Assembly (NCBI GenBank): GCA_015491865.1
Contig: WFVD01000002.1
Span: 1 to 50,625 of the forward strand
Origin: Gammaproteobacteria bacterium
GTDB lineage: Bacteria; Pseudomonadota; Gammaproteobacteria; SZUA-140
Direction: 5' to 3'
Length of the DNA stretch: 50,625 bases
Shown: piece after piece, positions 804 through 41,023 of the stretch
How positions within the stretch are numbered: the first letter of the stretch is position 1
Layout of the letters: the number at the start of each line of letters is the position of its first letter
Notes under the pieces: generated by a model
What the model was told of the DNA's origin: nothing
What the model saw: the letters and a program-made list of their open reading frames with translations, nothing else
The model's database searches: none
Position numbers and translations under genes: made by a program

Positions 804-2504
804 ATGAAATTTAGGCCGCTCGATTCGCGTAACACTTCAAAGATTGTTCCCCCGCCTGAAGCTTATTATCATTCGCAGGATGAGGTTAGTCTGATTGAGC
901 TGTGGGAAATTCTGATAAGAAAAAAGAATATAATCATCATCACCGTGGTGGTCTGTGTTGTCCTGGCGGTTGGTTATCTGCTGACTCAGCCCAAGGTCTA
1001 TAAATCTGAAGTATCCTTTGCTCCACCCTCAGCAACAGACATTCATCCTTTCAACATAATAGAGATAGCGGGTTTTACTGGTTTTACAGCCGAAGCGTTA
1101 TACAGCCGTTTTCTTGGTACAATTTCATCTAATGCTGTTTATAGAAAGGTATTTGATGAAGCGGGAGTAGTCTCTGTTATGGGAGGTGAAGGTCAGGATG
1201 ACAAAAATGTTTTTTTTCAGGGGTTCACCGAGAGCTTACAGCATCATATCCCAACAAAAGAGCAGGGTGCTGATTACAGCCAACCCGCGTCGCTTTCTCT
1301 GGAAGGAACCAATCCAGAGTTAATTAGTCGCTATCTTAATGCTGTTGTCAAAGAGGCAAACAGCCAGGTGATTACAGAAGCGGCTGCTGTTGTTCAGCAG
1401 AAAATAGATGCTCGCTTGCATCAAGTTTTACAGGAGATTGCCCGCAGCAGAGAAATTGCAGTTCGGCAGCGCCAGGATGAGGTTGCTCGTATGATAGAGC
1501 AGGATGGTCTGGCGCGTCAGCAGATCCTGGATGAGATTGCCATCGCCTACGGCAAAGCTGAGAAAAAACGCATTGCTGAAATATCGCGTCTGCAAGAAGA
1601 AGACAACATAAAACGGCAAAAACTACTGGATGAGATAGCCACTCTTCGTGAGCATGAAAATTTAAAGCGTAAAGAAGAGATAGTCCGTCTTGAAGAGGAA
1701 GATCGTATAAAACGTGAACAAATCAAGGAAACCATCAGCACTCTCCGCAGCAATGCAAAAACAAAACGACTGGATCGTATAGCGGCACTTCAAGAGGCAG
1801 CAAATATAGCCCAGAAAATTGAATTAACAGGAGCCATTGTCCAGAGTGATGCCCAGCGCAGGCAAGCCGTTATTGACGGTTTTGGATTGGGGAGCATGCC
1901 TCTATATTTATTAGGAGAAAAGGCGCTGAGAGCTGAAATAGAGGGCCTGTTATCAAGGTCTTCGGACGACCCGTTTATTCCTGGTTTGCGTTCATTACAG
2001 GATCAGCTGAAACAGCTTGAGACTAATGAGAAAATTGAGGCTTTAAAATCCCGGAGGAATCATGACCCTTTTATAGCGGGGCTACCAGAGCTTCTTGATC
2101 AACTCAAACAGCTGGAAACAAATGAAAGGATAGCGGCGCTAAAGTCTCGCAAGAGCAATGCTCCTTTCATTCCAGAATTAATAGAATTAGAGGCGCGCCT
2201 ACAGCGCCTGGAAAATAATCGATTACAGGAAAAATTACAGTCTCGTGTAAACGATGATTCTTTTATTCCTGAACTTCGCGAGCTGGAGCTGGAAGAACAA
2301 AAATTGAGAACATTTCTCATGGATACTAGCCAGACATTCAGCGTGAAGATAGACCAGGCTGCATATCCGGCAGGAGCGCCGCACAAACCCCGAAGTGATC
2401 TGATTCTGATACTGGGTGCCATATCAGGATTGATGCTCGGTGTGTTATTTGCTTTTTTTGCGCACTTTATCGCTACTGTCCGGTTAAAAAAATCGGTTAG
2501 CTGA
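804..2504 (+). CDS. Wzz-type polysaccharide chain-length protein, enlarged
   Basis: A 566-residue polysaccharide co-polymerase (Wzz/FepE-like) of the inner membrane, which sets the length of O-antigen or related polymers made by a Wzy polymerase. The family layout is clear: N-terminal membrane helix at about residues 44-62, periplasmic domain, proline-rich motif YPAGAPHKPRS, and C-terminal helix at about 534-558. Typical Wzz proteins are 320-380 residues. The excess here is a charged coiled coil (about residues 195-345) and four tandem 32-residue repeats (384-511). No wzx, wzy or glycosyltransferase cluster is adjacent, so the target polymer is unknown. ATG at 804 has only a weak ribosome site. 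Membership is well supported; the exact role is inferred. Confidence 0.82.
   Translation: MKFRPLDSRNTSKIVPPPEAYYHSQDEVSLIELWEILIRKKNIIIITVVVCVVLAVGYLLTQPKVYKSEVSFAPPSATDIHPFNIIEIAGFTGFTAEALYSRFLGTISSNAVYRKVFDEAGVVSVMGGEGQDDKNVFFQGFTESLQHHIPTKEQGADYSQPASLSLEGTNPELISRYLNAVVKEANSQVITEAAAVVQQKIDARLHQVLQEIARSREIAVRQRQDEVARMIEQDGLARQQILDEIAIAYGKAEKKRIAEISRLQEEDNIKRQKLLDEIATLREHENLKRKEEIVRLEEEDRIKREQIKETISTLRSNAKTKRLDRIAALQEAANIAQKIELTGAIVQSDAQRRQAVIDGFGLGSMPLYLLGEKALRAEIEGLLSRSSDDPFIPGLRSLQDQLKQLETNEKIEALKSRRNHDPFIAGLPELLDQLKQLETNERIAALKSRKSNAPFIPELIELEARLQRLENNRLQEKLQSRVNDDSFIPELRELELEEQKLRTFLMDTSQTFSVKIDQAAYPAGAPHKPRSDLILILGAISGLMLGVLFAFFAHFIATVRLKKSVS
1953..2336 (+). repeat. Four tandem 96-base (32-codon) repeats in the Wzz-like gene
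   Basis: Units begin at 1953, 2049, 2145 and 2241, exactly 96 bases apart, each opening with Ser-Arg. The consensus contains DPFIPxLxxLxxQLxxLE followed by NExIxALK. Units 1 and 2 are most alike (both contain DQLKQLETNE); unit 4 is the most diverged and runs into the C-terminal part. Spacing is kept without any indel, which points to in-frame tandem duplication of a helical hairpin segment. Confidence 0.9.
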
Positions 2505-3208: not shown

Positions 3209-4948
3209 TTATTGGCTGGAAGGAAGGAGGTCCGCTTTTGCTTCTCCCTGGCCCAGTGCTGAGCTGATCTTTTTAATGATGTGGCCAACCTTCATGCCAA
3301 CGGCTGTACCGACGCCGGGGCCGAGCACTGAGGTACCGATAACGCCGCCGATAATGACATCATTGGTGAGTCTTAAACGCGGATTGTTAACGGTGCCACC
3401 GACCTTCAGTGGTGCGCTGATGATAGAGGCTGTCTTGCGTAGCGCAACGGTGACCTCACCATCGAGCGCATCCTGCGGGTTTATCGTGATGTCGCCGTGA
3501 GCGCTTAGTGAGTCGGAAATAATATCAATGTCGGTGATGGTGATACGGTGATCTGCTATCGTTGCGTTGCCGGTTAGCCGCTGAAAAGGGGTATCACCAC
3601 CCTGTGACCCTTTTGATGACAGGGTAGTGCTTGCCTTTTCGAGGTCGGCTTTATAAAGCTTGCCATCTGTCATTCTAAAGCTTCCGTTTAGATATGGGTT
3701 CTCCAGTAGTTCTTCATTGTCGCGTTCAGTGAGGCTAAATTCAGCAGTGGCGTAGAAAGTGCCGCTGGCGACTTTATCATCAATGAAACCGGCAAGGAAT
3801 TTCTCTGCATCAATCTCGCTGGCGACCACCCAGCCTTCAATCTTCCACTGTGCTTTCCAGAAAAGATGGGTGATCCCCTGAATAGTCCCGCCGGCGGTTT
3901 TAAGGATGTTGTGCTCATTTATGAGCGCCCCTTTCGAGAGATCACCGTTAGCCGAAAACTCATCAAATCTCAGTAGTACGTGACCATCATCTTCTCTCTT
4001 AACGAGACCGTGCGAAATGTGGTATGCCCCCTTTGCTTCCGGATCGGTAAACAGTTGTCCTGGGTTTTTGCCATCAAGCCTGACAGTGAGATCGCTGTGG
4101 AAGCGCCCTTCATAGGTGTTGATGTCGAACTGTTTTAAGATGGGCGCGAGCTGAAGGTTACTGCTGTTGAGCTTTCCCTGGTAGCTCCAGCGTTCGCCCC
4201 AGCTGAGTGTGCCACTGGTTGTTAGTGATCCACCGTAGCCCTTGATCTCTACCCTGGTAAGCTCTGCTTTGCCTCTCTGTATGACTGCCTGTACATTTAA
4301 GCTGTCGAAGTTAAATGCGGGTGACACGGGCAGGCGCCAGTGCTTACCGCTGGCGCGCAGATTAAAAGTGTTATTGGTGTTGGGCCTGAGGATTGCCTGT
4401 AGCGTGTTGTCCATACGTGAAAACGAGATCTCTTTGCTGTTGAAGTCGCTGTCCAGCTGCAGGTTGAAGCGGTAGGGGCCAAGGGTGGTGAGGTCGTCGC
4501 TTCGCAACATCACGTTGCTCCCGCTGATCTGCCGCACGGCAAGCAAACTGCTGTGCGAGGTGTTGTTACCAGCATTTCCGGGAGGGGTGATCAGGGTGTT
4601 GATGAACTTCAGGTTGGTTCCCACGCCGTTAAGGTGAATGGTGGTGATGATGATTTCACCATCGAGCAGAGCCAGTGGATCGAGCGTTGTGCGCATCTGT
4701 TCAACAAATAGCTCACCCGGCTGATCTGGACTATTGAGTATCGATATATTAGTTGCCGTCAGTGCTGGTAGCGGCACTGCATGAGGGGTTAGTGCTCCTA
4801 TTATGACTTTGCGCCCAATACTCTGTGATAGCTGTTCCTCTAAAATAGTTCGAAAGCTATCGAGTGGGACGATGAATGGGATAGAGAAGAGTAGAGTGCC
4901 TAACAGTGTTGTGATGATGAGAAGGTATTTGAGAAATCGCTTAAACAT
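3209..4948 (-). CDS. AsmA-family protein
   Basis: A 579-residue AsmA-like protein with an N-terminal membrane helix (residues about 7-28) and a periplasmic body. The start, with FIVPLDSFRTILEEQLSQSIGRKV, matches the AsmA N-terminal domain, in which the protein begins a long beta-rich groove. AsmA-like proteins are linked to phospholipid transport or outer-membrane assembly. The C-terminus has the usual AsmA_2-type ending (LKVGGTVNNPRLRLT, then a glycine-rich segment). A consensus CRP site lies upstream (5064-5079). The 192-base space to the ABC permease suggests its own promoter. Confidence 0.85.
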   Translation of the reverse strand: MFKRFLKYLLIITTLLGTLLFSIPFIVPLDSFRTILEEQLSQSIGRKVIIGALTPHAVPLPALTATNISILNSPDQPGELFVEQMRTTLDPLALLDGEIIITTIHLNGVGTNLKFINTLITPPGNAGNNTSHSSLLAVRQISGSNVMLRSDDLTTLGPYRFNLQLDSDFNSKEISFSRMDNTLQAILRPNTNNTFNLRASGKHWRLPVSPAFNFDSLNVQAVIQRGKAELTRVEIKGYGGSLTTSGTLSWGERWSYQGKLNSSNLQLAPILKQFDINTYEGRFHSDLTVRLDGKNPGQLFTDPEAKGAYHISHGLVKREDDGHVLLRFDEFSANGDLSKGALINEHNILKTAGGTIQGITHLFWKAQWKIEGWVVASEIDAEKFLAGFIDDKVASGTFYATAEFSLTERDNEELLENPYLNGSFRMTDGKLYKADLEKASTTLSSKGSQGGDTPFQRLTGNATIADHRITITDIDIISDSLSAHGDITINPQDALDGEVTVALRKTASIISAPLKVGGTVNNPRLRLTNDVIIGGVIGTSVLGPGVGTAVGMKVGHIIKKISSALGQGEAKADLLPSSQ

Positions 4949-5016
4949 AGTGCTGCCTGATTCCTGTCAGTTTTTCGCTGCTGTTTTTGAATGATGGGGG
5001 TGAACTGCCCTGACTG

Positions 5017-5079
5017 ATTGTATCGGCCAGAGGTGGCGAGCTGAGTAGCTTTGACAGTTAGGCTGTGATAGCGGTCACA
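5017..5079 (-). promoter_or_regulatory. Putative CRP-dependent promoter of the AsmA-like gene
   Basis: TGTGATAGCGGTCACA at 5064-5079 is a perfect TGTGA-N6-TCACA CRP/Vfr site. Reading on the reverse strand, a TACAAT -10 box lies at 5022-5017 with no recognisable -35 at the right distance. A start site about seven bases further on would put the CRP site centre near -61, the class I activation position. A CRP/Vfr orthologue is encoded at 44492-45130. The site is seen directly; activation is inferred. Confidence 0.65.
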
Positions 5080-5140
5080 CTGCTGGATTGTAAGCGCTCT
5101 GATTGCTTGAATTTTTCAGAGTGATGCTGATAACGGCGCT

Positions 5141-6349
5141 CTATGAAATGGCCCTGGCGATATTGATTTTTGCGGCACGACAGGTGGAACGCAGTGATGC
5201 AAGGATGACAATTCCAATCAGTACCAGGCTGGTTACCAGATAGTGATGCCATGAAATGTAGATAAAAATGGGGTATCCCTCGGTCTTGCCCGGGGGTGCT
5301 GGCATCATTATTTCGGCGAGATTGATGGCGTGAGAGATGGCGTAAGCGAGCAACATGCCCAGCGTGGTGGCAGCGATACTGATGATGAATGCCTCTAGTA
5401 TAAAGTTAGCGTAGATTTGAGGCGGAGGTGTGCCGAGGGCGCTGAGTGTTGCAATTTCACTGCGGCGTTGATAAATGGCAAGTGAGATTGTGTTGGTAAT
5501 CGCGAGAAAGACCACGGTCAATATAATAACGGCCATCACGCCGAAGATGCGATCGTAGAGTGATTTTACCTTGTGATAGAGTGTGGCGCGCTGCTGCCAT
5601 GATTGTACGGTAACGCCATCTATTGACGCCTGTAGCGAATGCTGTAGTGCCGCACTCTCCTCTTTTTTATCGAGATAGATCGACAGCTGACTAATGTTGT
5701 CTGAACCCATTAATGCTGCACTTGTCGAGAGAGTTACCATCAGGGTGTGATTGTCAATGGCGGGTGTTCCGTTCTGATAAAGCCCCACGAGTCGTACGAC
5801 TGCTTCAGCACTCTCTCCATTACTGCGCACTGCGTGTAAGGTGAGCAGGTCGCCGCTGGTCGCATCTAATGTACGGGCAAGCTGCACGCCCAGCATAACC
5901 TCTGCTCTCTGTGATGATGTTGGCCATGGATCAAGTACAGCGGTGGTGCGCAGAAAAGGGCCGTGTACTCGGAATTCCTCTTTTGGGTCAACGCCACTGC
6001 CAAAAAAAACGGCGCTCCTGTTACCCTTTGAGACCACCCCTTCAAAGCGAGCCCTGGGCAAGACGCGCAGTACCCGATCGTCATTCCATAACGACTCACG
6101 GATGGTTTGCCAGTTGCTCAATGAGAGCTGCTGGTGAGAGCCGCCGAGCAACGGGTCAGGGGTGTCGTCGATAACAATGAGATGCCCCTCTGTACGCATC
6201 GTGATCTCCTGTAGTGAATCATAAGTGGAGAGCATGAAGCCGCCACTTACTAATAGCGCCGTAAGTCCGGTTGCAATGATCAGCAGCGTACTGATCACTC
6301 GTGTGCCATCGCGTAAAATATTACGCAGTGCAATGAGTGGCCCGTTCAT
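5141..6349 (-). CDS. ABC transporter permease, FtsX/LolC-MacB type
   Basis: A 402-residue permease with the four-helix FtsX layout: one N-terminal helix (residues about 18-38), a large periplasmic domain (about 40-270), then three helices near 273-295, 320-345 and 368-388. The family handles lipoprotein release, peptide export or cell-envelope signalling rather than nutrient uptake. Its start overlaps the ATPase gene by four bases (ATGA), so the two are translationally coupled. Only one permease gene is present, so a homodimer is likely. The substrate cannot be told from sequence. Confidence 0.85.
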   Translation of the reverse strand: MNGPLIALRNILRDGTRVISTLLIIATGLTALLVSGGFMLSTYDSLQEITMRTEGHLIVIDDTPDPLLGGSHQQLSLSNWQTIRESLWNDDRVLRVLPRARFEGVVSKGNRSAVFFGSGVDPKEEFRVHGPFLRTTAVLDPWPTSSQRAEVMLGVQLARTLDATSGDLLTLHAVRSNGESAEAVVRLVGLYQNGTPAIDNHTLMVTLSTSAALMGSDNISQLSIYLDKKEESAALQHSLQASIDGVTVQSWQQRATLYHKVKSLYDRIFGVMAVIILTVVFLAITNTISLAIYQRRSEIATLSALGTPPPQIYANFILEAFIISIAATTLGMLLAYAISHAINLAEIMMPAPPGKTEGYPIFIYISWHHYLVTSLVLIGIVILASLRSTCRAAKINIARAIS

Positions 6350-7026
6350 ACTGGATCTGCCAAGAAGCCGTGCAGCAGTGTCAGTTTCCGGTCACAGTGG
6401 TTGATCACCAATGGGTCATGGCTTGCGATAAGAAAGCTCGCGCCATACGTCTGGTTAAGTTCCCGCATGAGCTGCAGCCCAGCTTGAGCATGCGTGTGAT
6501 CCAGGCTGGCGCTGGGTTCATCTGCAATGACGAGTTGTGGCCGTTTGATCAATGCGCGCGCGATGCCGACCCGCTGTCGTTCGCCACCAGAGAGCTGATA
6601 TGGGTGGTGGTTACGTCTATGCTCCAGCCCCATTGTAGTGAGCAGCTGTGCCACATCATGCTTGATCTGTTTCGCTTTTACGTTATTGAGCTGGAGTGGG
6701 TAGGCGATATTGTCATACACCGTCATTGCGGGAATTAACTGATGTCGCTGGAAGATAAAGCCTATCTTACGGCGGCGACAGGCGCAGCGTCCGCGGTTAC
6801 TGAGCTGTGATACGGGTGTGCCGTTTAAATAATAGTCGCCATGAGTAGCGTGATCGATTAGTCCGCAAATATTCAGCAGTGTACTTTTGCCGCTACCCGA
6901 TGGCCCTTCTATCGCCAGGAACTCACCTGCATCCAGAGAAAATGAGATATCGCGGAGTACCACCGTCTGGTTGTCCGCCTTGCCAAAAGTTTTGCTAATG
7001 GCGTTTAAGGAGAGCCTCGTTGTCAT
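6346..7026 (-). CDS. ABC transporter ATP-binding protein, LolD/MacB type
   Basis: A 226-residue ATPase that powers the permease encoded just downstream. All motifs are intact: Walker A GPSGSGKST (41-49), Q-loop Gln93, signature LSGGE (145-149), Walker B LVIADE with Asp169-Glu170, and the switch His203. Sequence and length fit the LolD/MacB/FtsE group. It starts one base after the stop of the upstream periplasmic gene, so the three genes form one operon. Confidence 0.92.
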   Translation of the reverse strand: MTTRLSLNAISKTFGKADNQTVVLRDISFSLDAGEFLAIEGPSGSGKSTLLNICGLIDHATHGDYYLNGTPVSQLSNRGRCACRRRKIGFIFQRHQLIPAMTVYDNIAYPLQLNNVKAKQIKHDVAQLLTTMGLEHRRNHHPYQLSGGERQRVGIARALIKRPQLVIADEPSASLDHTHAQAGLQLMRELNQTYGASFLIASHDPLVINHCDRKLTLLHGFLADPV

Positions 7027-8628: not shown

Positions 8629-9705
8629 TCATGATCTGAGTTGACCGATGAGCAGCACTCCATAAAACCACAGCAGTGTTAGTAGTGCCGTGATCACAGT
8701 TGCTGGCCGCGAGTTGATCAACGGGGCGATGCGCCGGTCGTAAAATCTTAGCGTACTCTGCTCACCTTCGCCGGGCGGGTAGCCCGCTTTTCGGTTGTGC
8801 TGGCAATCTCTTTGAAATGCCAGTTGCCATGCGTTCTCAGCTACATAGCGGCCGGTATCGAGCCAGTAACGTAATCCCTGCCTTAGCCCTTTGGTAAACA
8901 CCAGACGATGGATGATTTTAAAAAATGGAACGAGATTTAAGTTCCCGGTCTGATCTTGTTGTCGATAGGCCTCTGTTGCCACATCAAAAAACTGCTGGAA
9001 CCCAATCCTGTCAAAGTTGCAGATAATGGCGTTCAGAGTCTGGCGCTGTTTTAGCCCTTCAATTTCGAAGCGACGTGCTGAGGTACCAACGCGACCGGGA
9101 AGGGTTACCCAGCGACCGTAATCGAAAATTTTATGGGCGAGGCGGGCATCTTCCATAAAGTTGAGTGATTCATCAAAGCCGCCCAACTGCTGTAGAAATG
9201 CTTTTGATAGCCAAAATCCCTGGTCGCCGTTGATGCAGTCCCGACGGTTAAGTCTAGTTTTTGCTTCAAAAAAATAATAGCCGCCGTCGTGATCATCTTG
9301 AGTGCGGATAAAATGGAGTCCGAAGTGTCCCGCAACATGATCGCTACTATTTTTACTGCGCGCTTCATGCATATATTTTTTTGCGTTGGCAAGTAATAGT
9401 GGGTCATCGATGGTGGTGTCCGCATGTAAAAAAAGTAGCTCATCGGCATCTGCATGGTGACTGCCCGCATTCATCTGTCTAGCGCGACCCGGTGGGGTGT
9501 CGATCACCCGAAAGGGAACCTTCACCGCATGAGCGGCAGTGTGGCAGAGGGGGATCGTTTCATCACTACTGCCGCCATCGGTAACAATGATCTCAATCGC
9601 TATCTCCTGTTGTGATCCCAGTGCGGTAATTAGTGCGGGTAGCTGTGCGGCCTCGTTGAGCGCCGGGATAATAATCGAGAGCTCGCAATCTGGTCGGGTG
9701 GTCAT
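8629..9705 (-). CDS. Arsenosugar-cluster family 2 glycosyltransferase
   Basis: A 358-residue GT-A glycosyltransferase of the group called rSAM/selenodomain-associated transferase 2 (TIGR04283). It shows the family 2 start LSIIIPALNEAAQLPALI (residues 9-26), a DGGSSDET nucleotide-binding loop and LLFLHADTTI with the metal-binding aspartate. Typical members are about 230 residues; this one has an extra 120 residues ending in a hydrophobic helix (about 333-353) that may tether it to the membrane. It overlaps the preceding gene by four bases (ATGA). Its sugar acceptor in arsenosugar synthesis is inferred from the neighbours. Confidence 0.85.
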   Translation of the reverse strand: MTTRPDCELSIIIPALNEAAQLPALITALGSQQEIAIEIIVTDGGSSDETIPLCHTAAHAVKVPFRVIDTPPGRARQMNAGSHHADADELLFLHADTTIDDPLLLANAKKYMHEARSKNSSDHVAGHFGLHFIRTQDDHDGGYYFFEAKTRLNRRDCINGDQGFWLSKAFLQQLGGFDESLNFMEDARLAHKIFDYGRWVTLPGRVGTSARRFEIEGLKQRQTLNAIICNFDRIGFQQFFDVATEAYRQQDQTGNLNLVPFFKIIHRLVFTKGLRQGLRYWLDTGRYVAENAWQLAFQRDCQHNRKAGYPPGEGEQSTLRFYDRRIAPLINSRPATVITALLTLLWFYGVLLIGQLRS

Positions 9706-10343
9706 GCCTGTTTTAGCTTATTGATAGGGCCAATTAGCCGTTCGGCCTCAGGGAGATCTTCTGGCCGATCGATATCCTGAAAGGTATCCAGCTCTGTGAG
9801 TGACCACTGGCAGCTGGCGATGCGTTCGCGGGTGGCCTTTAACACTTCGTCTGTTCCCCAGCGGATAGCTGAAAACGGTGCGGGGGAGTAGCGGGAAAGC
9901 CCTATCAGCACATAGCCGCCATCATAAGCGGGGGCGATCACAATGTCGCTGCCACGCGCTAAATGGGTAAAGGCCTCTTCAAGGTCGGTGGCACTGAGTG
10001 CTGGGCAGTCGGTGCCGATGATGACGCTATTAAAGCCCTGTTGCAGGTTATATTGCATCGCATAGGCCATCCGTTCGCCGAGGTTGCCGCCTTGCTGCGG
10101 GTACAGCGTGACCGCTGCGCTGTTTCTACACTGCTCAAAAAACGGATGGGTGGTGTCGGGTGCACACCAAAGCTGTAGCGGGCAGAGTGCCGCCTCAGTG
10201 GCAGTGGCGAGGGTGTGTGTTACCAGCCTCACATGTAGTGCAGCAGCACCGGCTTCACCGAGTGCGGGTATCAGGCGGGTCTTCGCCCTGCCGGCCTCGG
10301 GGGCTTTGGCAAAGATGAGCAGGCGTGCAGTGGGGAAGCGCAT
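9702..10343 (-). CDS. Arsenosugar-cluster transferase 1 (TIGR04282/DUF2064)
   Basis: A 213-residue nucleotidyl/glycosyl transferase-like protein (rSAM/selenodomain-associated transferase 1). The conserved start LLIFAKAPEAGRAKTRL, the central IGTDCPALSATDLEEA and APAYDGGYVLIGL motifs are all present. ATG 10343 lies five bases after the arsS stop, with GGATTAGG as ribosome site; an in-frame ATG at 10370 would overlap arsS and adds unconserved residues. Order arsS, this gene, then glycosyltransferase 2 is the usual cluster, and the three are probably co-transcribed. Confidence 0.88.
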   Translation of the reverse strand: MRFPTARLLIFAKAPEAGRAKTRLIPALGEAGAAALHVRLVTHTLATATEAALCPLQLWCAPDTTHPFFEQCRNSAAVTLYPQQGGNLGERMAYAMQYNLQQGFNSVIIGTDCPALSATDLEEAFTHLARGSDIVIAPAYDGGYVLIGLSRYSPAPFSAIRWGTDEVLKATRERIASCQWSLTELDTFQDIDRPEDLPEAERLIGPINKLKQA

Positions 10344-10348
10344 TGAGC

Positions 10349-11311
10349 CTAATCCAGCGCGCCACCACAACTGCTCCCCTGGCCGGCGGTGCAGCCATAG
10401 CAGTGCGCTTTAACGATGATGGGCTGCCCTTCAATATCAATCATATTGAGTTCGCTGATATGTGTGCGCGGTTTCTGGTCCAGCGGAGCGGGCAGGTTGA
10501 GCATCTGGTTAAAGTCACAGTCGTAAATATAGCCTTGCCAGTCAACGCTGACGGTGGAGCGGCACATGACATCGTTAAGGGTGTCGCCATTGTATGAATC
10601 GCGCAGTAACGTCATATACTCTTCGAATAGTCCTTTGGAAATCAGCATACTGCCAAAGCGTTTGATCGGCATGTTGGTGATGGTGAAAAGCTGGTTGAAC
10701 TGGATCTCGTAATGTTCTTTGAGATGGGTTTTATAGGCGCTTTCAAGTGACGCCTGCGGTGGTGGCAGCACAGCCCCCTGTGGATTGTAGACCAGGTTTA
10801 TGGTGAGGCCACTGCTGGCGCTACCGTAGCCGAGCTGATTGAGTTTTTTAAGCCCCTCAATGCTGCGACGAAAGACCCCTTGGCCTCGTTGCGTATTAAC
10901 ATTATCTTCAAGGTAACATGGTAGTGATGCCACGATCTCGACCTGTTGTTCGGCAAGAAACGCTGCCAGATCATCGTATCCCTCTTCACTGAGGATGGTG
11001 AGGTTACAGCGGTCGATAACCTTGATGCCGAGTGTGCGCGCGCCGCGAACCAGGTCACGAAAATGTGGATTCATCTCGGGCGCACCGCCGGTCAGGTCGA
11101 GGGTTTTGATGTTGCCCTGTGCGAGATAGCTCAGGATTTCGTTGATGGTGTTACGATGCATGAGCTCTTTGCGTGTCGGCCCTGCGTTCACATGGCAGTG
11201 CAGGCAGGACTGGTTGCAGAGATAGCCGAGGTTAACCTGTAGCGTCTCTAGCTGCGCGCGTTGCAGTGGTGGAAAATCGGTGGCTTCAAGTAGCGGAAGC
11301 GTGGCGTGCAT
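10349..11311 (-). CDS. arsS: Radical SAM protein ArsS (arsenosugar biosynthesis)
   Basis: A 320-residue radical SAM enzyme with the CNQSCLHCH cluster motif (Cys32, Cys36, Cys39) and the cysteine-rich C-terminal domain (DUF3641) ending CYGCTAGQGSSCGGALD. Members bind two Fe-S clusters and are proposed to attach the adenosyl-derived sugar to methylated arsenic. In some relatives a C-terminal cysteine is selenocysteine; here all are ordinary codons. I chose ATG 11311, preceded by AAAGGGACC, over an in-frame start at 11410 that adds 33 residues of unlike sequence. No arsM methyltransferase is adjacent. Confidence 0.9.
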   Translation of the reverse strand: MHATLPLLEATDFPPLQRAQLETLQVNLGYLCNQSCLHCHVNAGPTRKELMHRNTINEILSYLAQGNIKTLDLTGGAPEMNPHFRDLVRGARTLGIKVIDRCNLTILSEEGYDDLAAFLAEQQVEIVASLPCYLEDNVNTQRGQGVFRRSIEGLKKLNQLGYGSASSGLTINLVYNPQGAVLPPPQASLESAYKTHLKEHYEIQFNQLFTITNMPIKRFGSMLISKGLFEEYMTLLRDSYNGDTLNDVMCRSTVSVDWQGYIYDCDFNQMLNLPAPLDQKPRTHISELNMIDIEGQPIIVKAHCYGCTAGQGSSCGGALD

Positions 11312-11686
11312 GGTGGTCCCTTTATCTAATACATTAAGTTTAATCAAATTTTTTTGATGCTGTGATACCCGAGGTCTGACTACCTCTCTCTCCGGTGAAA
11401 AGCATACCATGCAAACCAGATGGGGGTGGTGGTTGTACGGGGTGTGAAAGGTAGTCGTGGTGTGAGTCGGAACCTTTCAGTTCATGGCATCGGTTTTGAT
11501 ATGGGTAGTGGTTCAGTTTTTTGTGTGAAATGGCGATATAGCTGCATAGCTTTTTAATTTTATTTTATGGTGGTCAACAGCCAGTCAGAGGTTTCTTAAG
11601 GCGCTTCTGGTGGTATATCCCGTATCCGGTCCGGAATTGCTGGGATCGGGAAGAGAGGCCTGTATGAACATGGGGGTTACTGGGCG
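11312..11686. other. Divergent intergenic region of arsS and the Hpt gene
   Basis: The 375 bases separate arsS (reverse) from the Hpt gene (forward) and must contain both promoters. The part nearest arsS is AT-rich with a run of seven T (11349-11355). I found no convincing paired -35/-10. Near the Hpt end there is an eight-codon reading frame, 11664-11690, with GAGAGG ahead of it; its stop codon overlaps the Hpt start codon as ATGA. Confidence 0.45.
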
Positions 11687-29277: not shown

Positions 29278-29336
29278 AACATTTTTATGATCGTTGAGAT
29301 CACGGAATACGTGACGAAAACGGGGTGATTTTTAAT

Positions 29337-31556
29337 ATGAGTTTTAGCAAGATCAAACGTAGAGATTTTCTCAAAATAATGGGATGGGGCGGTGTCGGCG
29401 CTACGTTGGTAGGTTGTGATTTGCCAACGACGGTGACACTTGAGGAGGGCAAAGAGAAGGTAGTTTCCTACCTGATGCCAGAAGAGTATGTGATTCCTGG
29501 CGTAGGCGTCTGGTATGCTTCTACCTGTCAGCAGTGCCCATCGGGCTGCGGCATTCATGGTCGTGTACGTGAAGGGCGCGTTCTGAAGCTGGAAGGTAAT
29601 CCAGCCTCCTCTGTAAATAAGGGACGTTTGTGCCAGATGGGCCAGGCTAGTCTTCAGGCACACTACAACCCTGATCGTATCGCTAAGCCAAAAATCCGCA
29701 GAGGCTCTTCGCTGGTAGATGCAACCTGGGAAGAGGCTTATGGGCTGATTGCTGAAAAAACGGCCAATATCAGTGGTAGTAAATTTGCGTGGATGACGGG
29801 TTCTGTCAGTGGTCACCAGTCTGTTCTGTTGCAGGCATATCTTGAGTCGATTGGCTCGGGTAACCACTTTGTTCATGAGACCATTAATAACGCAGTCTGG
29901 GCGAAGGTGTGTCAGGATATGCTGGGAGACAGCAATCCTCGTATCCGTTTAGATAAGGCGCAGTCAATGCTTTCATTTGGCGCAGACTTCCTGGGCACCT
30001 GGGGATCACCGCTGCACTTCTCAACAGAGTACGCGAAATTCCGCACATCCCCGCGCGGTACTCTGATTCAGGTTGAGCCAAACATGACGCTGACGGGTGC
30101 AAATGCGGATCTATGGGTGGCGAGCAGACCTGGATCGGAAGGTGCGCTGGCGCTGGGTATTGCTAATCAGCTGGTGAGCAAACAGGGCCTGAGCATGAGT
30201 GGCCTGCCTAACAGCGTTCAGTCGTTGATTCGCAGTTACACGCTTGATGAGACCGTCACCGCGACCGGTGTTGATGCCGATCGCATTGCAGATATCGCCG
30301 CCACCCTGAAACGTCGTTCTCCAAGTGTTGTCCTTGCGGGCGCATCGGCACAGGGACATGAGCACGGCTATCAATGTGTTGCCGCTGCGATGGTACTGAA
30401 TGTCATTCTTGGTAACATTGGTAAGACGATTGAATCTAACGGCGAGTTTGCGTATGCAAGCATGGCACCCGTGAGCGGCAACACGCACTCACTGGTCTCA
30501 TTTTCACAGGCAGCCGCTGACAAACGCTTCGATGTTGTTTTCTTCTCGGGGGTTAACCCTGTTTACACTGCTCCAAAATCGCTTGGTTTGAAAGAGAGTC
30601 TGGCTAATATCCCGTTTAAGGTTGTTTTCTCTCATTTTAATGATGAAACCACCGCAATGGCTGATGTTGTATTGCCACTCGCCTCAACTGAAGAAGACTG
30701 GGGCACTCACGTAGCACCTTATCAGGCAGGTGTAGGTGAAATCAGCATTCAACAGCCACTGATGGAGCCGCTCTCAACAGAGACGCGCGGGTTTGGCGAT
30801 ATTGTGCTGACGCTGCTGAAGAAACGTAAAGAGACTGCTTACGAAGGTTTTGCTGACTACTATGCATACCTGCGTAATGCATTTTCAACCATTCCGGCTG
30901 AGCATAAAAACGGCGCAAGTGACGAGCAGTTCTGGACTGATGTGCTGGCAGCTGGTTTGATTGATGTCGGTGTAAAGAAGACCTCTCTGAAGGTTAAAGG
31001 GGTTGAATTTGATATGCCTAAAGAGATGGGGAACTCATCAGCGATGATATTAGCGCCATCTGCAAGGCTGGGTTTCTGGGATGGCCGACACGCCAATCTT
31101 CCCTGGTTGCAGGAAGCACCCGATCAGATCAGCAAAGTGGTATGGGACTCATGGGCTGAGCTCCACCCTTCTACTGCCAAGAAGATTGGCGTGAAAGAGG
31201 GTGACATGGTCAAGATTGCGTCGGCTTCTGGTGAGATCAATGTGAAGGTTTATATTTACAAAGGTGTGCACCCCGATGTCATCGCCGTTCCGTTGGGTCA
31301 GGGGCATGATGCCGGTTTCAGCCGCTATGCCAAAGACCGTGGTGTTAACTCACTCAGTATTCTTGACCCGAAAGTAGACAAGATGACGGGTGAATTAGCG
31401 CTCTACTCAACTAACGTTAAAGTAACCAAGGCGGCTAAAACAGATGATGTTCTGGTTCGTTTTGGTGGTAGTGAAACACAGGTAGGTCGTAAGCTGGTTT
31501 CAACCATCCCAGCTGATGTCTACGAGCGCACAGAAGGAGGCGATCATGTCGCTTAG
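29337..31556 (+). CDS. actB1: Alternative Complex III molybdopterin-like subunit, ActB1
   Basis: A 739-residue protein with the molybdopterin-oxidoreductase fold. It begins with a twin-arginine signal (KIKRRDFLKIMG) whose end LVGC (Cys27) looks like a lipobox. In solved Complex III structures this fold carries no Mo cofactor. Here the N-terminal four-cysteine site is kept: Cys64, Cys67, Cys71, Cys99 (C-x2-C-x3-C-x27-C). ActB is usually one fused protein; here it is split and actB2 overlaps by 11 bases. ATG 29337 follows GGGGTGA. Export would use the Tat system encoded at 23.3-24.9 kb. Confidence 0.92.
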   Translation: MSFSKIKRRDFLKIMGWGGVGATLVGCDLPTTVTLEEGKEKVVSYLMPEEYVIPGVGVWYASTCQQCPSGCGIHGRVREGRVLKLEGNPASSVNKGRLCQMGQASLQAHYNPDRIAKPKIRRGSSLVDATWEEAYGLIAEKTANISGSKFAWMTGSVSGHQSVLLQAYLESIGSGNHFVHETINNAVWAKVCQDMLGDSNPRIRLDKAQSMLSFGADFLGTWGSPLHFSTEYAKFRTSPRGTLIQVEPNMTLTGANADLWVASRPGSEGALALGIANQLVSKQGLSMSGLPNSVQSLIRSYTLDETVTATGVDADRIADIAATLKRRSPSVVLAGASAQGHEHGYQCVAAAMVLNVILGNIGKTIESNGEFAYASMAPVSGNTHSLVSFSQAAADKRFDVVFFSGVNPVYTAPKSLGLKESLANIPFKVVFSHFNDETTAMADVVLPLASTEEDWGTHVAPYQAGVGEISIQQPLMEPLSTETRGFGDIVLTLLKKRKETAYEGFADYYAYLRNAFSTIPAEHKNGASDEQFWTDVLAAGLIDVGVKKTSLKVKGVEFDMPKEMGNSSAMILAPSARLGFWDGRHANLPWLQEAPDQISKVVWDSWAELHPSTAKKIGVKEGDMVKIASASGEINVKVYIYKGVHPDVIAVPLGQGHDAGFSRYAKDRGVNSLSILDPKVDKMTGELALYSTNVKVTKAAKTDDVLVRFGGSETQVGRKLVSTIPADVYERTEGGDHVA

Positions 31557-32418
31557 TAATCTAATCGATGACTGGTCAAGATATCGTAAAGGCCGTGAAG
31601 AGGGTGGTTTCCACGACTATGAACATATGTGGGGCATGTCGATCGATCTGAACAAATGTATTGGTTGCAATGCCTGTTCAGTGGCGTGTTATGCAGAAAA
31701 CAATCTTGCTGTTGTAGGTAAAGAGAAGTTTGAAAAAGGTCAGGGTATGCACTGGCTACGCGTTGAGCGCTACTGGGATGAGCCGGATCTTGGAGAGGAG
31801 AGAACCAGCGAATTTCAACAGCATGGCGCCAGCTTTTTACCCATGATGTGTCAACAGTGTAATGCAGCGACCTGTGAACCTGTCTGTCCAGTAGCCGCAA
31901 CTTATCACACGCCAGATGGTTTGAATGCACAGGTCTATAACCGCTGTATTGGTTCACGTTACTGTTCCAATAACTGTCCGTTCCGCCTGCGCTATTTTAA
32001 TTTCTGGTCATACTATGAAGATTCATGGCCAGCTCCCTTGCAGATGCAGTTAAACCCTGACATTTCTGTTCGTGATATGGGTGTGATGGAGAAGTGTACC
32101 TTCTGTGTCCAGCGCATTCGTACGGTAAAAGATACCGCCAGAATGGAAGACCGCAAAGTCAGAGATGGTGAAGTTCAGACCGCCTGTTCACAAACCTGTC
32201 CAACAGGCGCGATCGAATTTGGAGACATGCTCGGCATGTACGATCCTGAGACTGGTGTTGCAGAGACCAGGGTGACGAAGATGTGGCGTAAGCATCAAGT
32301 CGAGCTCGGCAAAACTAAACAGAACAAACAGACCCCTGAGATGCGCGGCTATCGGGTCTTCGAATTCCTGAATACTGATCCATGTGTGATGTATCTGGAT
32401 CGTGTTCGCGAAGTTTAG
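31546..32418 (+). CDS. actB2: Alternative Complex III iron-sulfur subunit, ActB2
   Basis: A 290-residue NrfC/DmsB-type protein for up to four Fe-S clusters. The first motif is Cys38, Cys41, Cys44, Cys48 (CIGCNACSVAC); further ones are CQQCNAATCEPVCP, CIGSRYCSNNCP, CTFCVQRI and CSQTCPTG. It would carry electrons from the quinol site in ActC towards ActA. It has no signal of its own and was probably exported together with ActB1. AAGGAGG precedes ATG 31546; an upstream in-frame ATG at 31516 lies inside actB1. Confidence 0.94.
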   Translation: MSLSNLIDDWSRYRKGREEGGFHDYEHMWGMSIDLNKCIGCNACSVACYAENNLAVVGKEKFEKGQGMHWLRVERYWDEPDLGEERTSEFQQHGASFLPMMCQQCNAATCEPVCPVAATYHTPDGLNAQVYNRCIGSRYCSNNCPFRLRYFNFWSYYEDSWPAPLQMQLNPDISVRDMGVMEKCTFCVQRIRTVKDTARMEDRKVRDGEVQTACSQTCPTGAIEFGDMLGMYDPETGVAETRVTKMWRKHQVELGKTKQNKQTPEMRGYRVFEFLNTDPCVMYLDRVREV

Positions 32419-32461
32419 TATGTCAACATCTTTGAGCCTAATAACGAAATCGGTGTAAAAC

Positions 32462-33898
32462 ATGCAAAATAATGAAGTTTACAAAGATATTAATGAAGAT
32501 CTGAAGTGGGCGCAGATCAACAAAGACGTCTTGAAATCGATGGAAAACCCTCGTAAGGGTTACTGGATTTCAGTGGCAGTATGTCTTTTCTTGATCAGCT
32601 TTGCTGTCGTTGGTGAGGTATACCAGTATAACGTCGGCATGGGCGCTGCAAATTTAAACTGGCCACACATGTGGGATTTATACATTGCGACATTTATCTT
32701 CTGGATTGGTATGAGCCATGCTGGAACATTACTGTCAGCGATCCTGCATATTATGAACGCGGATTGGCGTAAACCGATCTATCGATTCGCAGAGGCGATG
32801 ACTACATTCTCGCTGATGACAGCGGGCCTCTTCCCAATGATTCACCTTGGTCGCCTGTGGAATATGTACTGGGTACTACCATATCTGACTGATCGTGGTA
32901 TCTGGCCGAATTTTCGCTCACCGTTGGTGTGGGATGCGTTCGCGATTAGTACCTATCTGACATCATCGGCGCTCTTCCTCTTTATCGGTATGATCCCTGA
33001 TCTGGCGATCTGTCGTGATAACGCAAGAGGCTGGCGTAAGAAGCTGTATACGGCCCTCTCTTTAGGGTGGCGTGGTGATGACCGTCAGTGGAGAAACTTT
33101 CGTCGTACCTATTTAATTATGGCCTGTTTCCTGATTCCACTCGCGGTATCGGTTCACTCGATCGTATCGTCTGACTTTGCAATGTCGATTATGCCTGGCT
33201 GGGCCGTTACCTCTTTCCCACCATACTTTGTTGCGGGTGCGCTTTACTCAGGTTGTGCAGCGATTATCACGCTCTTCATCCTGTTGCGTTACTACTTCCG
33301 CTGGGAAGAGTACATGACCATTGCGATCCTGGAAAAGACCGCCAAACTGACCTTTGCTATCGCAATGGTATGGACTTATCTGAACCTGATCGAGTTCGCT
33401 TCAGTCTGGTACGGCCACTCTGCAGCAGATAAAGAAGTGCTGCTGGCCAAGTTCTTTGGGCCATATGCACCATTTTTCTGGGGCATGATCTTCTGTGGCT
33501 CAGTGGTGCCGTTTGCATTAGCCTTTGAGAAATTACGAAGACATCTTCCAACCATGATGGTTGTTTCAATTCTGTTGAACCTGGGGATGTGGCTGGAGCG
33601 CTGGATGATCGTGACACCTACGCTGTCGCTTTCATACCACCCAATCGCACATGATGTGATGTGGCCGAGCTGGGTTCAGTGGTTTATTGTTGCGGGGAGC
33701 TTTGGCTGGTTCGGTCTACTCTTCCTGGTCTTTGTAAAAGTGTTCCCATCAGTTTCTATGTATGAGTGTAAGGAAATGGTACTGCACCGTCGTGAGCTGG
33801 CTAATAAAGAGATATCACCAGTAATGGCAAATAATCCCGGTGGAGGAGCCCCAGCAACGGGAGTGTCCAGCAAATCACCAGGCGTGGAGGGTTCCTAA
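32462..33898 (+). CDS. actC: Alternative Complex III NrfD-like membrane subunit, ActC
   Basis: A 478-residue integral membrane protein with about ten helices, of the NrfD/PsrC family. ActC holds the quinol-binding site and is thought to take part in proton movement. Recognisable segments include WIGMSHAGTLLSAILHI, SFPPYFVAGALYSGCAA and LRYYFRWEEYMT. The C-terminal tail is glycine/serine-rich and hydrophilic. It starts 43 bases after actB2 and ends one base before actD. Confidence 0.94.
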   Translation: MQNNEVYKDINEDLKWAQINKDVLKSMENPRKGYWISVAVCLFLISFAVVGEVYQYNVGMGAANLNWPHMWDLYIATFIFWIGMSHAGTLLSAILHIMNADWRKPIYRFAEAMTTFSLMTAGLFPMIHLGRLWNMYWVLPYLTDRGIWPNFRSPLVWDAFAISTYLTSSALFLFIGMIPDLAICRDNARGWRKKLYTALSLGWRGDDRQWRNFRRTYLIMACFLIPLAVSVHSIVSSDFAMSIMPGWAVTSFPPYFVAGALYSGCAAIITLFILLRYYFRWEEYMTIAILEKTAKLTFAIAMVWTYLNLIEFASVWYGHSAADKEVLLAKFFGPYAPFFWGMIFCGSVVPFALAFEKLRRHLPTMMVVSILLNLGMWLERWMIVTPTLSLSYHPIAHDVMWPSWVQWFIVAGSFGWFGLLFLVFVKVFPSVSMYECKEMVLHRRELANKEISPVMANNPGGGAPATGVSSKSPGVEGS

Positions 33899-34972: not shown

Positions 34973-35030
34973 GCGCAGAGACTGTGGTCGTTTTAGAATC
35001 AGAACATAATTAGAGATAGCGAGGCTTCCG

Positions 35031-36101
35031 ATGGATGAAAATTTTGGTAGTTGGTCCGTTTTAACGACTAACTTTCTCATGACGCTCTACATAGCGCTGG
35101 GTGGTGTCACACTCGCCTCTGTATTGCATCTTATAAATGCTCAATGGCGTTTCCAGGTTCGTTATATTGCAGTAGCTACCGCCGCACTGTTCCCGCTTGC
35201 AGGTGTGCTACTGATCATTCTACTGTTGAATGGCGAAAGCACATTCGTATGGCTGGCAACGGCAGATGATCCTAATAACCACCTGCCTGGGTGGCACAAC
35301 TACACTTTCCTGGTCTTCCGTGAAATCGGGGGGTTTATTGGTGTTGCGGCGCTGTATCTGATGTTTATTAAATATCAGCATCTGGCCTCTGTAGATGATA
35401 AGTACAAACGTAAGTTTCGTAACATTGCGTTATTGATCCCGTTTGCTTACTTTCTGTATGGTTCTATGATTGCGTGGGATTTCGAAATGACAATGTACCC
35501 TGGCTGGCATAGTGCTAACTACGGCGCATATCAGTTCGTAAGTGGTTTCCAAATGTTTCTGGCGTTCTTTACAGTGCTGCTCTACTTCCTGGGGCGTTCA
35601 GGTGTGCTGGTGAAGGAACTGCCGATCTACATCTCAAACTTCCTCGCGCAGTTTATGCTGGCAATGACGATTTTGTGGACATACCTCTACTTTACCCAGT
35701 ACCTGATTATGTGGTACGGCCGTCTGCCATCCAACATGGATCGCTTTGATGCGATGATGCATAACGACCTGTCAGTGATCTGGTGGACATTCCTGGCGTG
35801 TAAATTTGTGATTCCATTTCTCACATTTGTGATCACCCCGAATCGCCATAATCCAACCACTGTTATGGTAATTGCATGCTTTATTATCTTAGGCACATGG
35901 TTAGAGCGTTACACCTGGATTTCAGGTTCTGGCGATCCAGCGTTCTATCACATGCCAATGACATCACTCTTTGACATCCTTGTCACCGCGATCGTCATTG
36001 CTGCAGGTTACTTCTCAATGAAGAAAGTGTTACTGCATTACGGGATCATTCGTACTAAGCAGGAAGCTATCGAGAAGAAGAGCGCTGAACAAAGCGCATA
36101 A
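35031..36101 (+). CDS. actF: Alternative Complex III NrfD-like membrane subunit, ActF
   Basis: A 356-residue membrane protein with about ten helices, a second NrfD-like paralogue of ActC. Segments such as WWTFLACKFVIPFLTFVITP and the tryptophan-rich ends of helices fit ActF. It is the last gene of the operon, 58 bases after actE, and is followed by a strong terminator at 36127. No oxidase genes follow. Confidence 0.9.
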   Translation: MDENFGSWSVLTTNFLMTLYIALGGVTLASVLHLINAQWRFQVRYIAVATAALFPLAGVLLIILLLNGESTFVWLATADDPNNHLPGWHNYTFLVFREIGGFIGVAALYLMFIKYQHLASVDDKYKRKFRNIALLIPFAYFLYGSMIAWDFEMTMYPGWHSANYGAYQFVSGFQMFLAFFTVLLYFLGRSGVLVKELPIYISNFLAQFMLAMTILWTYLYFTQYLIMWYGRLPSNMDRFDAMMHNDLSVIWWTFLACKFVIPFLTFVITPNRHNPTTVMVIACFIILGTWLERYTWISGSGDPAFYHMPMTSLFDILVTAIVIAAGYFSMKKVLLHYGIIRTKQEAIEKKSAEQSA

Positions 36102-36126
36102 GTAATACTCACTTGTGAGTCATTAT

Positions 36127-36155
36127 AAAGGGGGCCTTTATGGCCCCCTTTTTTT
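36127..36155 (+). terminator. Rho-independent terminator of the act operon
   Basis: AAAGGGGGCC (36127-36136), loop TTTAT, then GGCCCCCTTT (36142-36151) and a T run. The stem is a perfect ten base pairs, 26 bases after the actF stop. Confidence 0.95.
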
Positions 36156-36261
36156 ATCCTGAATCCAGACTATTTTTTTCTCATATCACGCAGTGCTTTA
36201 TTCGAGCTAATCATTACCCATCAGGCTTAATTCCACTGGTGAGGAATAGAGTCAATAGGTG

Positions 36262-37215
36262 TTATTTTATGACGGTCACGCCACTGGCATGGTGTTTAAG
36301 CCAGCCAATAATGCGTTTACTGAGCAGAGCTTCATGACCTCGGAATGAGTGGTTAGCACCACTGATCAAAAATTTACGGTAGGCAATAAAACCACCTGTT
36401 TTACTAAATGCCCCGGTCGCAGTTGCGGAGCGCTCAAAAGCGGAAAATTGCCTGTTCTTTGAGGCCTTAAGGCCACCGCGTCGTGCTGCGAGGGCACGTC
36501 TATCTGCGGAATTGATGACGCTCGCAAGGTCGTTGCTACCGTAGAGATCCAGCATCGGTAAATTCATCTGTTCGATCGATGTTGTGAGGTCCATCCAGCT
36601 TTCACCCTCTTGATAAGCGGGCATACTGATACCGATAAATGCTGTGACGCCACTATCGGCATTGGTGGCGAGAAATGAGGCCCCAATCACTGAGCCAAGA
36701 CCGTACCCCAACAGGACAATATTACTGTTGTTGATGTTACGAAAATAGTCAATGGCCGCCTTGATGCGTGCAGTGGAAGTGGCGATAGTACCCGCATAGT
36801 CTGAAATCTCCCCCCCCTTCTCCAGGGCGGGTAGCTGAATGGCGAGCGTAGACCAGCCGTGTAGTGGCAGTGATTGTCGCAGTGGCGAGATCACCTCAGG
36901 CCAGTCCGGGTGCCCGCCCATGTCGTGTAGTAAAATAACCCCCCCTCGCAGGGTGCCTGTAAAGTCATCCTGATAAAGTGCGATGAACTTTTCATCGGCT
37001 GCAGTCAACCACTTGGTTTCATCGGGGGGAGATGATTTTAATAGCGCTTTTTCCCACACTTTTTCATGATTTCTGGGCCCGGAGGCAGCCTCACCTGGCG
37101 CACTTGAAAAGAGTGCGATTAATAAGAACAGCAGGGGCGCACACGAGAAAAATGGTGAGAGCCAGCCGGATGAGGACTCTGTGAGCGGGGGGAATGTGGA
37201 TAGTAAACGGGCCAT
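36262..37215 (-). CDS. DUF3530 alpha/beta-hydrolase-like protein
   Basis: An exported protein of about 317 residues with an alpha/beta-hydrolase fold of the DUF3530 type. GVILLHDMGGHPDWPEVISP matches the family. The nucleophile elbow reads GYGLGS, so the usual GxSxG serine is replaced by glycine; activity as an ordinary esterase is doubtful. A hydrophobic signal lies about 35 residues in. Start is uncertain: ATG 37215, ATG 37239 or GTG 37254, none with a good ribosome site. It is divergent from rpe. Confidence 0.72.
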   Translation of the reverse strand: MARLLSTFPPLTESSSGWLSPFFSCAPLLFLLIALFSSAPGEAASGPRNHEKVWEKALLKSSPPDETKWLTAADEKFIALYQDDFTGTLRGGVILLHDMGGHPDWPEVISPLRQSLPLHGWSTLAIQLPALEKGGEISDYAGTIATSTARIKAAIDYFRNINNSNIVLLGYGLGSVIGASFLATNADSGVTAFIGISMPAYQEGESWMDLTTSIEQMNLPMLDLYGSNDLASVINSADRRALAARRGGLKASKNRQFSAFERSATATGAFSKTGGFIAYRKFLISGANHSFRGHEALLSKRIIGWLKHHASGVTVIK

Positions 37216-37340
37216 ATCAAATGCATATATCGGTAACATTAAGAAAAACCGCACGAATATTCGTTGTGAAGAGTGAAAAAAGCGCTGTTTTCGGGTAAAG
37301 TTGCGGGTTCGTTTTTTGAGCTTAATTTAAGAGGTACGCC

Positions 37341-38030
37341 ATGAAAGAGTTCCTGATTGCCCCATCTATCCTGTCGGCCGATTTCGCGCGCCTTGGCGAA
37401 GAGGTAGACAACGTGCTGGCATCTGGCGCAGATATTGTCCATTTTGATGTGATGGACAACCACTACGTTCCAAACCTGACCATCGGCCCGCTGGTTTGTG
37501 ATGCGCTACGGAAACATGGTGTCACCGCTGAAATCGATGTCCATTTGATGGTGAAACCGGTTGATCGTATCATCCCCGATTTTGCTGCTGCAGGGGCAAG
37601 CTACATCACCTTTCACCCGGAAGCCAGCGAGCATATTGACCGCTCACTGCAACTGATCCGTGCGGAAGGGTGTAAATCGGGACTGGTATTTAATCCGGCG
37701 ACCTCGCTTGATTGCCTGAAATATGTGATGGATAAAATCGATATGATTCTGTTGATGTCGGTCAACCCGGGCTTTGGAGGGCAGAGTTTTATACCGGCAA
37801 CACTGGATAAACTGCGCGAAGCACGCAAGTTGATCGATGATAGCGGCTATGACATCCGCCTTGAAATCGATGGTGGCGTTAAGGTTGATAACATCCGCGA
37901 GATTGCCGAAGCAGGCGCAGATACCTTTGTGGCCGGCTCTGCTATTTTTAATGCAGCCAATGAGTCGGATGCCAACGATTACAATAGCGTGCTGGCCGCG
38001 ATGCGCGCAGAGTTAGCAAAGACACAATAA
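37341..38030 (+). CDS. rpe: Ribulose-phosphate 3-epimerase
   Basis: A 229-residue TIM-barrel enzyme that interconverts ribulose 5-phosphate and xylulose 5-phosphate in the pentose-phosphate or Calvin cycle. [33 protein letters not shown] and [10 protein letters not shown] carry the metal and catalytic residues. AAGAGG precedes the ATG by eight bases. It is followed after two bases by gph, a frequent pairing ahead of trpE in gammaproteobacteria. Confidence 0.97.
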
Positions 38031-38032
38031 AC

Positions 38033-38713: not shown

Positions 38714-38718
38714 ATGAA

Positions 38719-41021: not shown

Positions 41022-41023
41022 AT

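What the first reader, a model, noticed from the sequence alone, without database searches (positions are those of the whole stretch)
804..2504. Oversized Wzz with four exact 32-residue repeats and an expanded coiled coil
The protein is about 200 residues longer than typical Wzz. The 96-base repeats start at 1953, 2049, 2145 and 2241 without indels. They would lengthen the periplasmic helical stalk. Repeat number could tune polymer length, as a molecular ruler set by DNA slippage.
Basis: partly seen in the sequence, partly recalled or inferred. Interest (0 to 1): 0.5.

Follow-up and report, generated by a model that had tools for sequence, protein, structure and literature searches.

The report
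Wzz regulator built in paired storeys
A protein that sets the length of bacterial surface sugar chains is much taller than usual because two matching sets of four repeats, one in each arm of its helical stalk, have grown in step; relatives with one, two or three such pairs give a natural series for testing whether its size measures the sugar chain.

Summary
The 566-aa Wzz gene at 804-2504 is real, but its repeats are not exact copies. The 96-bp spacing is exact; the copies share only 36-57 of 96 bases and 11-23 of 32 residues. In 223 measured Wzz frames (174 distinct below 90% identity) the two limbs lengthen in lockstep: 1A/1B 75, 2A/2B 96, 3A/3B 1, 4A/4B 2, no mismatched case. P. aeruginosa Wzz1 (long O antigen) is 1/1; Wzz2 (very long) is 2/2. 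AlphaFold predicts one continuous 168-residue helix (102 in a 2/2 relative; difference 66 = 2 x 33) and a B limb broken every ~32 residues. Best reading: each A+B pair adds one storey (~50 A) to the periplasmic cylinder, enlarging the lumen proposed to set chain length. DNA slippage is not supported: copies are diverged, match one-to-one with a congener's copies, and that congener also has four. A new variant (4/4) of a known family with a quantised construction rule. Polymer length was not measured; the ruler step is inference.

The parts
804..2504 (+). wzz-like gene, 566 aa (PCP-1 polysaccharide co-polymerase, 4A/4B form)
   Evidence: PF02706 E 3.8e-9; Foldseek ranks 1-14 are all WzzE/WzzB/FepE chains
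924..983 (+). first transmembrane helix, aa 41-60
   Evidence: helix H41-60 in the AlphaFold2 model; hydrophobic segment; membrane role inferred from the family
1314..1817 (+). ascending helix (alpha6 equivalent), aa 171-338, predicted as one continuous 168-residue helix
   Evidence: model pLDDT mostly 70-85 along it
1419..1814 (+). A array: four 33-residue modules, aa 206-238, 239-271, 272-304, 305-337
   Evidence: hydrophobic period 3.64-3.66 (close to 11/3, hendecad)
1815..1934 (+). tip region (L4-like), aa 338-377, between the arrays
   Evidence: (landmark distances)
1935..2318 (+). B array: four 32-residue modules, aa 378-409, 410-441, 442-473, 474-505, each a helix with an S-x-D-D-P-F-I-P-like break
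   Evidence: helix breaks at 385-394, 420-426, 451-456, 483-488
2343..2495 (+). C-terminal linker and second transmembrane helix (GNVR-like aa 514-552; helix 531-564)

Best explanation
The gene encodes a Wzz-type (PCP-1) polysaccharide co-polymerase. Its periplasmic stalk is built from paired modules: each 33-residue A module in the ascending long helix is matched by one 32-residue B module in the descending limb. Adding one A and one B adds a storey of about 50 A to the ring-shaped periplasmic cylinder and keeps the helical hairpin in register. This protein has four storeys where E. coli WzzB aligns as one. Shown here: the two arrays, their strict 1:1 stoichiometry across relatives, and a low-to-moderate-confidence structure prediction with a long continuous helix. 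Inferred: that the protein forms a ring like WzzB, that the extra storeys enlarge the lumen in which Wzy's product grows, and that this sets a longer modal polymer (in the measuring-cylinder picture of published work). An extrapolation from published WzzB dimensions gives about 23-32 five-sugar repeat units more per storey.
For: Lockstep: limb A = 45 + 33k exactly in 172 of 174 distinct proteins and limb B = 55 + 32k within 3 residues in 172 of 174; classes 1/1 75, 2/2 96, 3/3 1, 4/4 2, no off-diagonal case; r = 0.998, against r = 0.64 for limb A and the tip loop (first pass, 139 proteins, r = 0.9985). Copy number changes at least 7 times by parsimony on a 139-protein tree built without the extra modules, and 3/3 sits with 2/2 proteins in a supported clade. 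AlphaFold2: helix 171-338 here and 173-274 in the 2/2 Thiothrix protein. VIA-align fits WzzE 8c0e_F (263 of 277 residues, 4.0 A) to model residues spanning 47-545, so the model returns to its base with the extra modules left over in between. P. aeruginosa Wzz1 is 1/1 and Wzz2 is 2/2; Wzz1 regulates long and Wzz2 very long O antigen (PMC6381286 passages). Seven genomes carry both a 1/1 and a 2/2 copy. Residue K321 of Wzz2, whose change shifts modal length (PMC10030265), lies in the first B module. Lumen volume was proposed to set chain length (PMC13161533 sections 5, 8, 9). No extra storey appears in the alignments of WzzB and FepE to the profile.
Against: FepE makes very long chains in an alignment with no extra A module, by a wider rather than taller lumen (PMC13161533), so height is not the only determinant. 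Model confidence is modest (pLDDT 66.5, pTM 0.37; 63.3 and 0.38 for the 2/2 protein) and it is a monomer; long-helix folds give high Z by default. B modules counted by profile agree with limb length in only 106 of 139 proteins (25 of the 2/2 class show one recognisable B, 4 show three, 4 of the 1/1 class show none), so in many Pseudomonas-like proteins the second B module is recognised by length, not by sequence. In P. aeruginosa Wzz2 the 33-offset signal is fair (3 of 500 shuffles as high) but the 32-offset signal is not significant alone (41 of 500). No Wzy, oligomer or polymer was studied.
Confidence: 0.62

Rival explanations
1. Oligomer-stability reading: extra A/B pairs add protomer-protomer contacts that keep the ring closed longer, so longer chains come from time or stability, not from height or volume.
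For: PMC10030265 names oligomer stability as a third factor; PMC13161533 credits Huszczynski et al. with a stability argument. Lockstep growth is equally expected if A of one protomer packs on B of a neighbour.
Against: Does not by itself explain the exact 33/32 quantisation better than the storey reading; stability could rise without adding height.
Confidence: 0.17
2. Reach or bridge reading: the four-storey form is tall enough (about 250 A by extrapolation) to approach the outer membrane or cross the peptidoglycan and works as a trans-envelope spacer or docking tube, in the manner of Wzc-Wza.
For: Extrapolated height: about 100 A for WzzB plus 3 x 49.5 A. The distance between membranes matters for trans-envelope proteins (PMC5736177 passages).
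Against: The tip region is L4-like and Pfam shows no partner-binding module there; no polysaccharide-export gene was seen among the 17 neighbouring ORFs scanned; most relatives have only one or two storeys.
Confidence: 0.1
3. Neutral elongation of a coiled coil: duplications drifted in and do not change polymer length; lockstep only reflects folding constraint.
For: Folding constraint alone could give lockstep.
Against: The 4/4 number and all eight modules are kept between two species at 88% identity; 1/1 and 2/2 paralogues coexist in 7 genomes and in P. aeruginosa they regulate different chain lengths.
Confidence: 0.08
4. Repeat number varies by DNA slippage and tunes chain length rapidly.
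For: Tandem in-frame arrays exist.
Against: Copies at most 59% identical in DNA, longest common run 11 nt, no tandem-repeat call, one-to-one orthology with a congener and the same number; a change would need matched events in two separate arrays.
Confidence: 0.02

Closest known systems
Pseudomonas aeruginosa Wzz2 (very-long O-antigen regulator)
   Same: Wzz family; 2A/2B by landmark lengths (78 and 87 against 45 and 55); gene not inside an O-antigen cluster, as here
   Different: two storeys, not four; second B module weakly recognisable. Its unique regions were described as essential by Huszczynski et al. 2019, which I could not read (only title and citing remarks seen)
E. coli/Shigella WzzB and E. 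coli FepE
   Same: domain order, TM1-base-long helix-tip-descending limb-TM2; profile matches; best fold matches
   Different: one storey in the profile alignment; FepE enlarges the lumen by widening (PMC13161533) and is about ten residues shorter in the B limb in the alignment
WbdD coiled-coil ruler of E. coli O9a
   Same: coiled-coil length sets O-antigen length (PMC5082667 passages)
   Different: capping enzyme of the ABC-transporter pathway, three-stranded parallel coiled coil, unrelated protein
Wzc and KpsE co-polymerases
   Same: distantly related folds
   Different: kinase or ABC-transporter partners; the window protein has no kinase domain

Membership tests
Wzz / PCP-1 co-polymerase | N-terminal Wzz domain (PF02706) | tested here: met
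   E 3.8e-9, 37.2 bits, cut-off 25.5
Wzz / PCP-1 co-polymerase | TM1 and TM2 flanking a periplasmic alpha/beta base with a long helix | tested here: met
   predicted secondary structure; fold matches to WzzE, FepE and WzzB, low-confidence model
Wzz / PCP-1 co-polymerase | no cytoplasmic tyrosine-kinase domain (separates it from Wzc) | tested here: met
   566 aa end just after TM2; Pfam lists no kinase
Wzz / PCP-1 co-polymerase | ring oligomer around Wzy | not testable with these tools
   only monomer prediction available
Wzz / PCP-1 co-polymerase | controls modal polymer length | not testable with these tools
   needs an LPS or polymer assay
Multi-storey (n>=2) Wzz, Wzz2-like | matched extra A and B modules (limb A 78+, limb B 87+) | tested here: met
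   144 and 151 in the window protein
WbdD-type ruler | kinase/methyltransferase plus coiled coil | tested here: not met
   no such domains; works alike at most by analogy
Slippage-driven (phase-variable) repeat gene | near-identical tandem DNA copies with varying number among close relatives | tested here: not met

The most novel reading that the evidence does not exclude
Wzz proteins form a natural series of one to four storeys in which A and B modules are always added in pairs, each pair adding a fixed height and lumen volume and hence a fixed increment of polymer; the four-storey form would make an O antigen of order 100 repeat units and span most of the periplasm.
Probability: 0.35. Interest if true: 0.8.

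Novelty: new variant of a known kind. Interest (0 to 1): 0.6.

Why it matters
How Wzz sets polymer length has been argued over for decades; recent cryo-EM work favours a filled-lumen model. A family in which height changes in discrete, matched steps gives a clean natural series (1, 2, 3, 4 storeys, sometimes two sizes in one genome) to test whether polymer length rises by a constant amount per storey. It also shows an unusual rule of protein evolution: a hairpin tube that seems able to lengthen only by paired insertions in two separated places of the gene.

Tried and rejected
Rejected: exact repeats and slippage. Rejected as the main measure: counting A modules by a short profile, which recognised only one of the three inferred from limb length in the 3/3 protein; I used landmark distances instead, and a B-profile count disagrees in 33 of 139. 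A weak Pfam hit to bDLD1 over the B array (E 0.0025, under its cut-off) was put down to coiled-coil composition. Led nowhere: genome contigs with the eight-row alignment (no conserved stretch), and with three rows only one locus; viral contigs with the window protein and Wzz2 (no relatives); plasmids gave only four P. aeruginosa records. Papers on extra modules: searches listed none whose title or abstract start describes paired modules, in a library that lacks Huszczynski 2019 and Hagelueken 2015; Kintz and Goldberg 2011 was never looked up. This is no claim of absence from print. Structures: no chain matched by the Wzz profile carries a title suggesting an extra-storey Wzz; only WzzB and FepE were read residue by residue. 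PslE (9v6l) matches over a longer stretch than the profile and was not followed up. Odd rows kept in the counts: L049 (limbs 52 and 68), L093 (41 and 54), L226/L227 (B limb 92).

Rows dropped before counts: 14 frames not measurable, 9 of them cut by a locus end; the other five are L139, L156, L164, L281 and L282. Frames scoring under 15 bits on the base or cap profile, or lacking one of them, were not considered. The sample is not random: it follows profile hits in 1569 genomes, only returned loci plus 80 regions chosen by hand from the hit lists, and one family (f160) supplies most 2/2 cases.

Full report
Observation. The ORF 804-2504 (+) encodes 566 aa with a Wzz domain at aa 26-118 (E 3.8e-9) and a near-threshold GNVR match at 514-552. 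They are nevertheless real at protein level: self-score at offset 32 is 220 against a maximum of 48 in 500 shuffles.

A second array. The same test on the preceding helix gives a second period, 33 residues, self-score 176 against a shuffle maximum of 60. It covers aa 206-337 as four modules (A1-A4). The A array has a hydrophobic period of 3.64-3.66 residues, close to 11/3, and 33 is three hendecads, so every module presents the same face. B modules carry an S-x-D-D-P-F-I-P-like break.

Relatives. Among 94 genomes a congener (G006) has a 570-aa protein at 88% identity with 4A/4B; others are 1/1, 2/2 or 3/3. I searched 1569 genomes in 12 searches. In the class sample 53 of 369 genomes had a match at E <= 1e-10; in the order of G060 33 of 143 had a match at E <= 1e-20 and the measured ones were all 1/1; in the Pseudomonas-like family f160 88 of 298 had a match at E <= 1e-25.

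Lockstep. I measured limb A (base landmark to the conserved cap of the long helix) and limb B (start of the descending limb to the proline before TM2) with three separate profiles that leave the extra modules out. Of 237 frames with base and cap hits, 223 could be measured and 14 could not, 9 of these because the locus ends inside them. All 223 fall on the diagonal: 1/1 77, 2/2 143, 3/3 1, 4/4 2; after reduction below 90% identity, 174: 75, 96, 1, 2. Limb A is 45, 78, 111 or 144 in 172 of 174; limb B departs from 55 + 32k by more than 3 in 2 of 174. A first pass with 139 proteins gave the same picture. The tip loop varies more on its own (r = 0.64 with limb A, against 0.998 for B). Against this: counting B modules by sequence profile agrees in 106 of 139 proteins; 25 of the 2/2 proteins show only one recognisable B, 4 show three, and 4 of the 1/1 proteins show none. 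So in part of the family the second B is inferred from length.

Evolution. On a 139-protein tree made from the common parts only, copy number changes at least 7 times by parsimony. The 3/3 protein sits in a supported clade with 2/2 proteins; the 4/4 pair is one supported clade; 2/2 occurs in several families. Many forks are open and starred branches alone force only two changes for the 2/2 class. Between the window and G006 each module is most like its same-numbered counterpart (A 27-29/33, B 24-30/32) and much less like the others (A 9-18/33, B 11-22/32), and the flanks are collinear at 89%. The arrays are old and stable, which speaks against recent slippage.

Structure. AlphaFold2 with a two-row alignment (mean pLDDT 66.5, pTM 0.37) gives one helix 171-338 and B helices broken at 385-394, 420-426, 451-456 and 483-488. 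The 2/2 Thiothrix protein (pLDDT 63.3, pTM 0.38) gives helix 173-274: 102 against 168 residues, a difference of exactly two modules. Foldseek ranks 1-14 are all WzzE, WzzB or FepE. VIA-align fits 263 of 277 residues of WzzE 8c0e_F at 4.0 A to model residues spanning 47-545 (Z 12.2), so the chain returns to the base with the extra modules unmatched in between. Helical bundles score high by default and the model is a monomer, so packing of B on A is supported mainly by the lockstep, not by the model.

Function. P. aeruginosa has Wzz1 for long and Wzz2 for very long O antigen (PMC6381286, passages). The Wzz1 and Wzz2 genes here (identified by context: beside polysaccharide genes after ihfB, and beside relA-mazG-lpxO2; the link of these contexts to Wzz1 and to PA0938/Wzz2 is recalled, though K at residue 321 fits the published K321T) are 1/1 and 2/2. 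Seven genomes likewise hold a 1/1 and a 2/2 copy (G450, G487, G501, G465, G1152, G1216, G1233). K321 of Wzz2, whose change shifts modal length (PMC10030265 discussion), lies in its first B module. WzzB is about 100 A tall with an inner width of 30-35 A (PMC7809406 passages). PMC13161533 (abstract and sections 3, 5, 8, 9) gives WzzB 39,571 A3 and about 26 repeat units, FepE 143,033 A3 and about 95, and proposes that lumen volume sets chain length. With 49.5 A per storey and that width, each storey adds 35,000-48,000 A3, or 23-32 five-sugar units; four storeys would be about 250 A tall and hold of order 100 units. This is extrapolation; that 250 A is about the depth of an E. coli periplasm is recalled. 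FepE shows that width can do the same job as height, so height is one means and not the rule.

Verdict. The protein is a Wzz by the tested features and a new variant by its four matched storeys. The structural statement (paired storeys) I hold at about 0.85, the measuring function at about 0.6.

Noticed in passing
window 8629-11410 (-): Cluster that looks like arsenosugar biosynthesis: TIGR04283 glycosyltransferase (just under its cut-off), DUF2064 protein, radical SAM protein with DUF3641.
   Followed up: no
window 3209-7026 (-): AsmA/YhdP-like protein next to a LolC/E-like permease and LolD-like ATPase; scores below the equivalog cut-offs, so possibly a different exporter.
   Followed up: no
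window 29325-33898 (+): Molybdopterin oxidoreductase followed by an NrfD-like subunit, polysulphide-reductase-like.
   Followed up: no
L204, L206, L208, L209, L219, L222: Pseudomonas-like family f160 often carries two divergent 2/2 wzz genes close together, several pairs falling in two different subclades.
   Followed up: partly
L190 (G1233): A 1/1 and a 2/2 wzz gene lie in the same fetched stretch of about 3-4 kb.
   Followed up: partly
L049 (G079): Odd Wzz with limbs of 52 and 68: both longer than one storey by less than a module; the profile match holds an internal stop.
   Followed up: no
PDB 9v6l/9v75 (PslE): Matches the Wzz profile over a stretch about 110 residues longer than the profile; could be another tall co-polymerase.
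   Followed up: no
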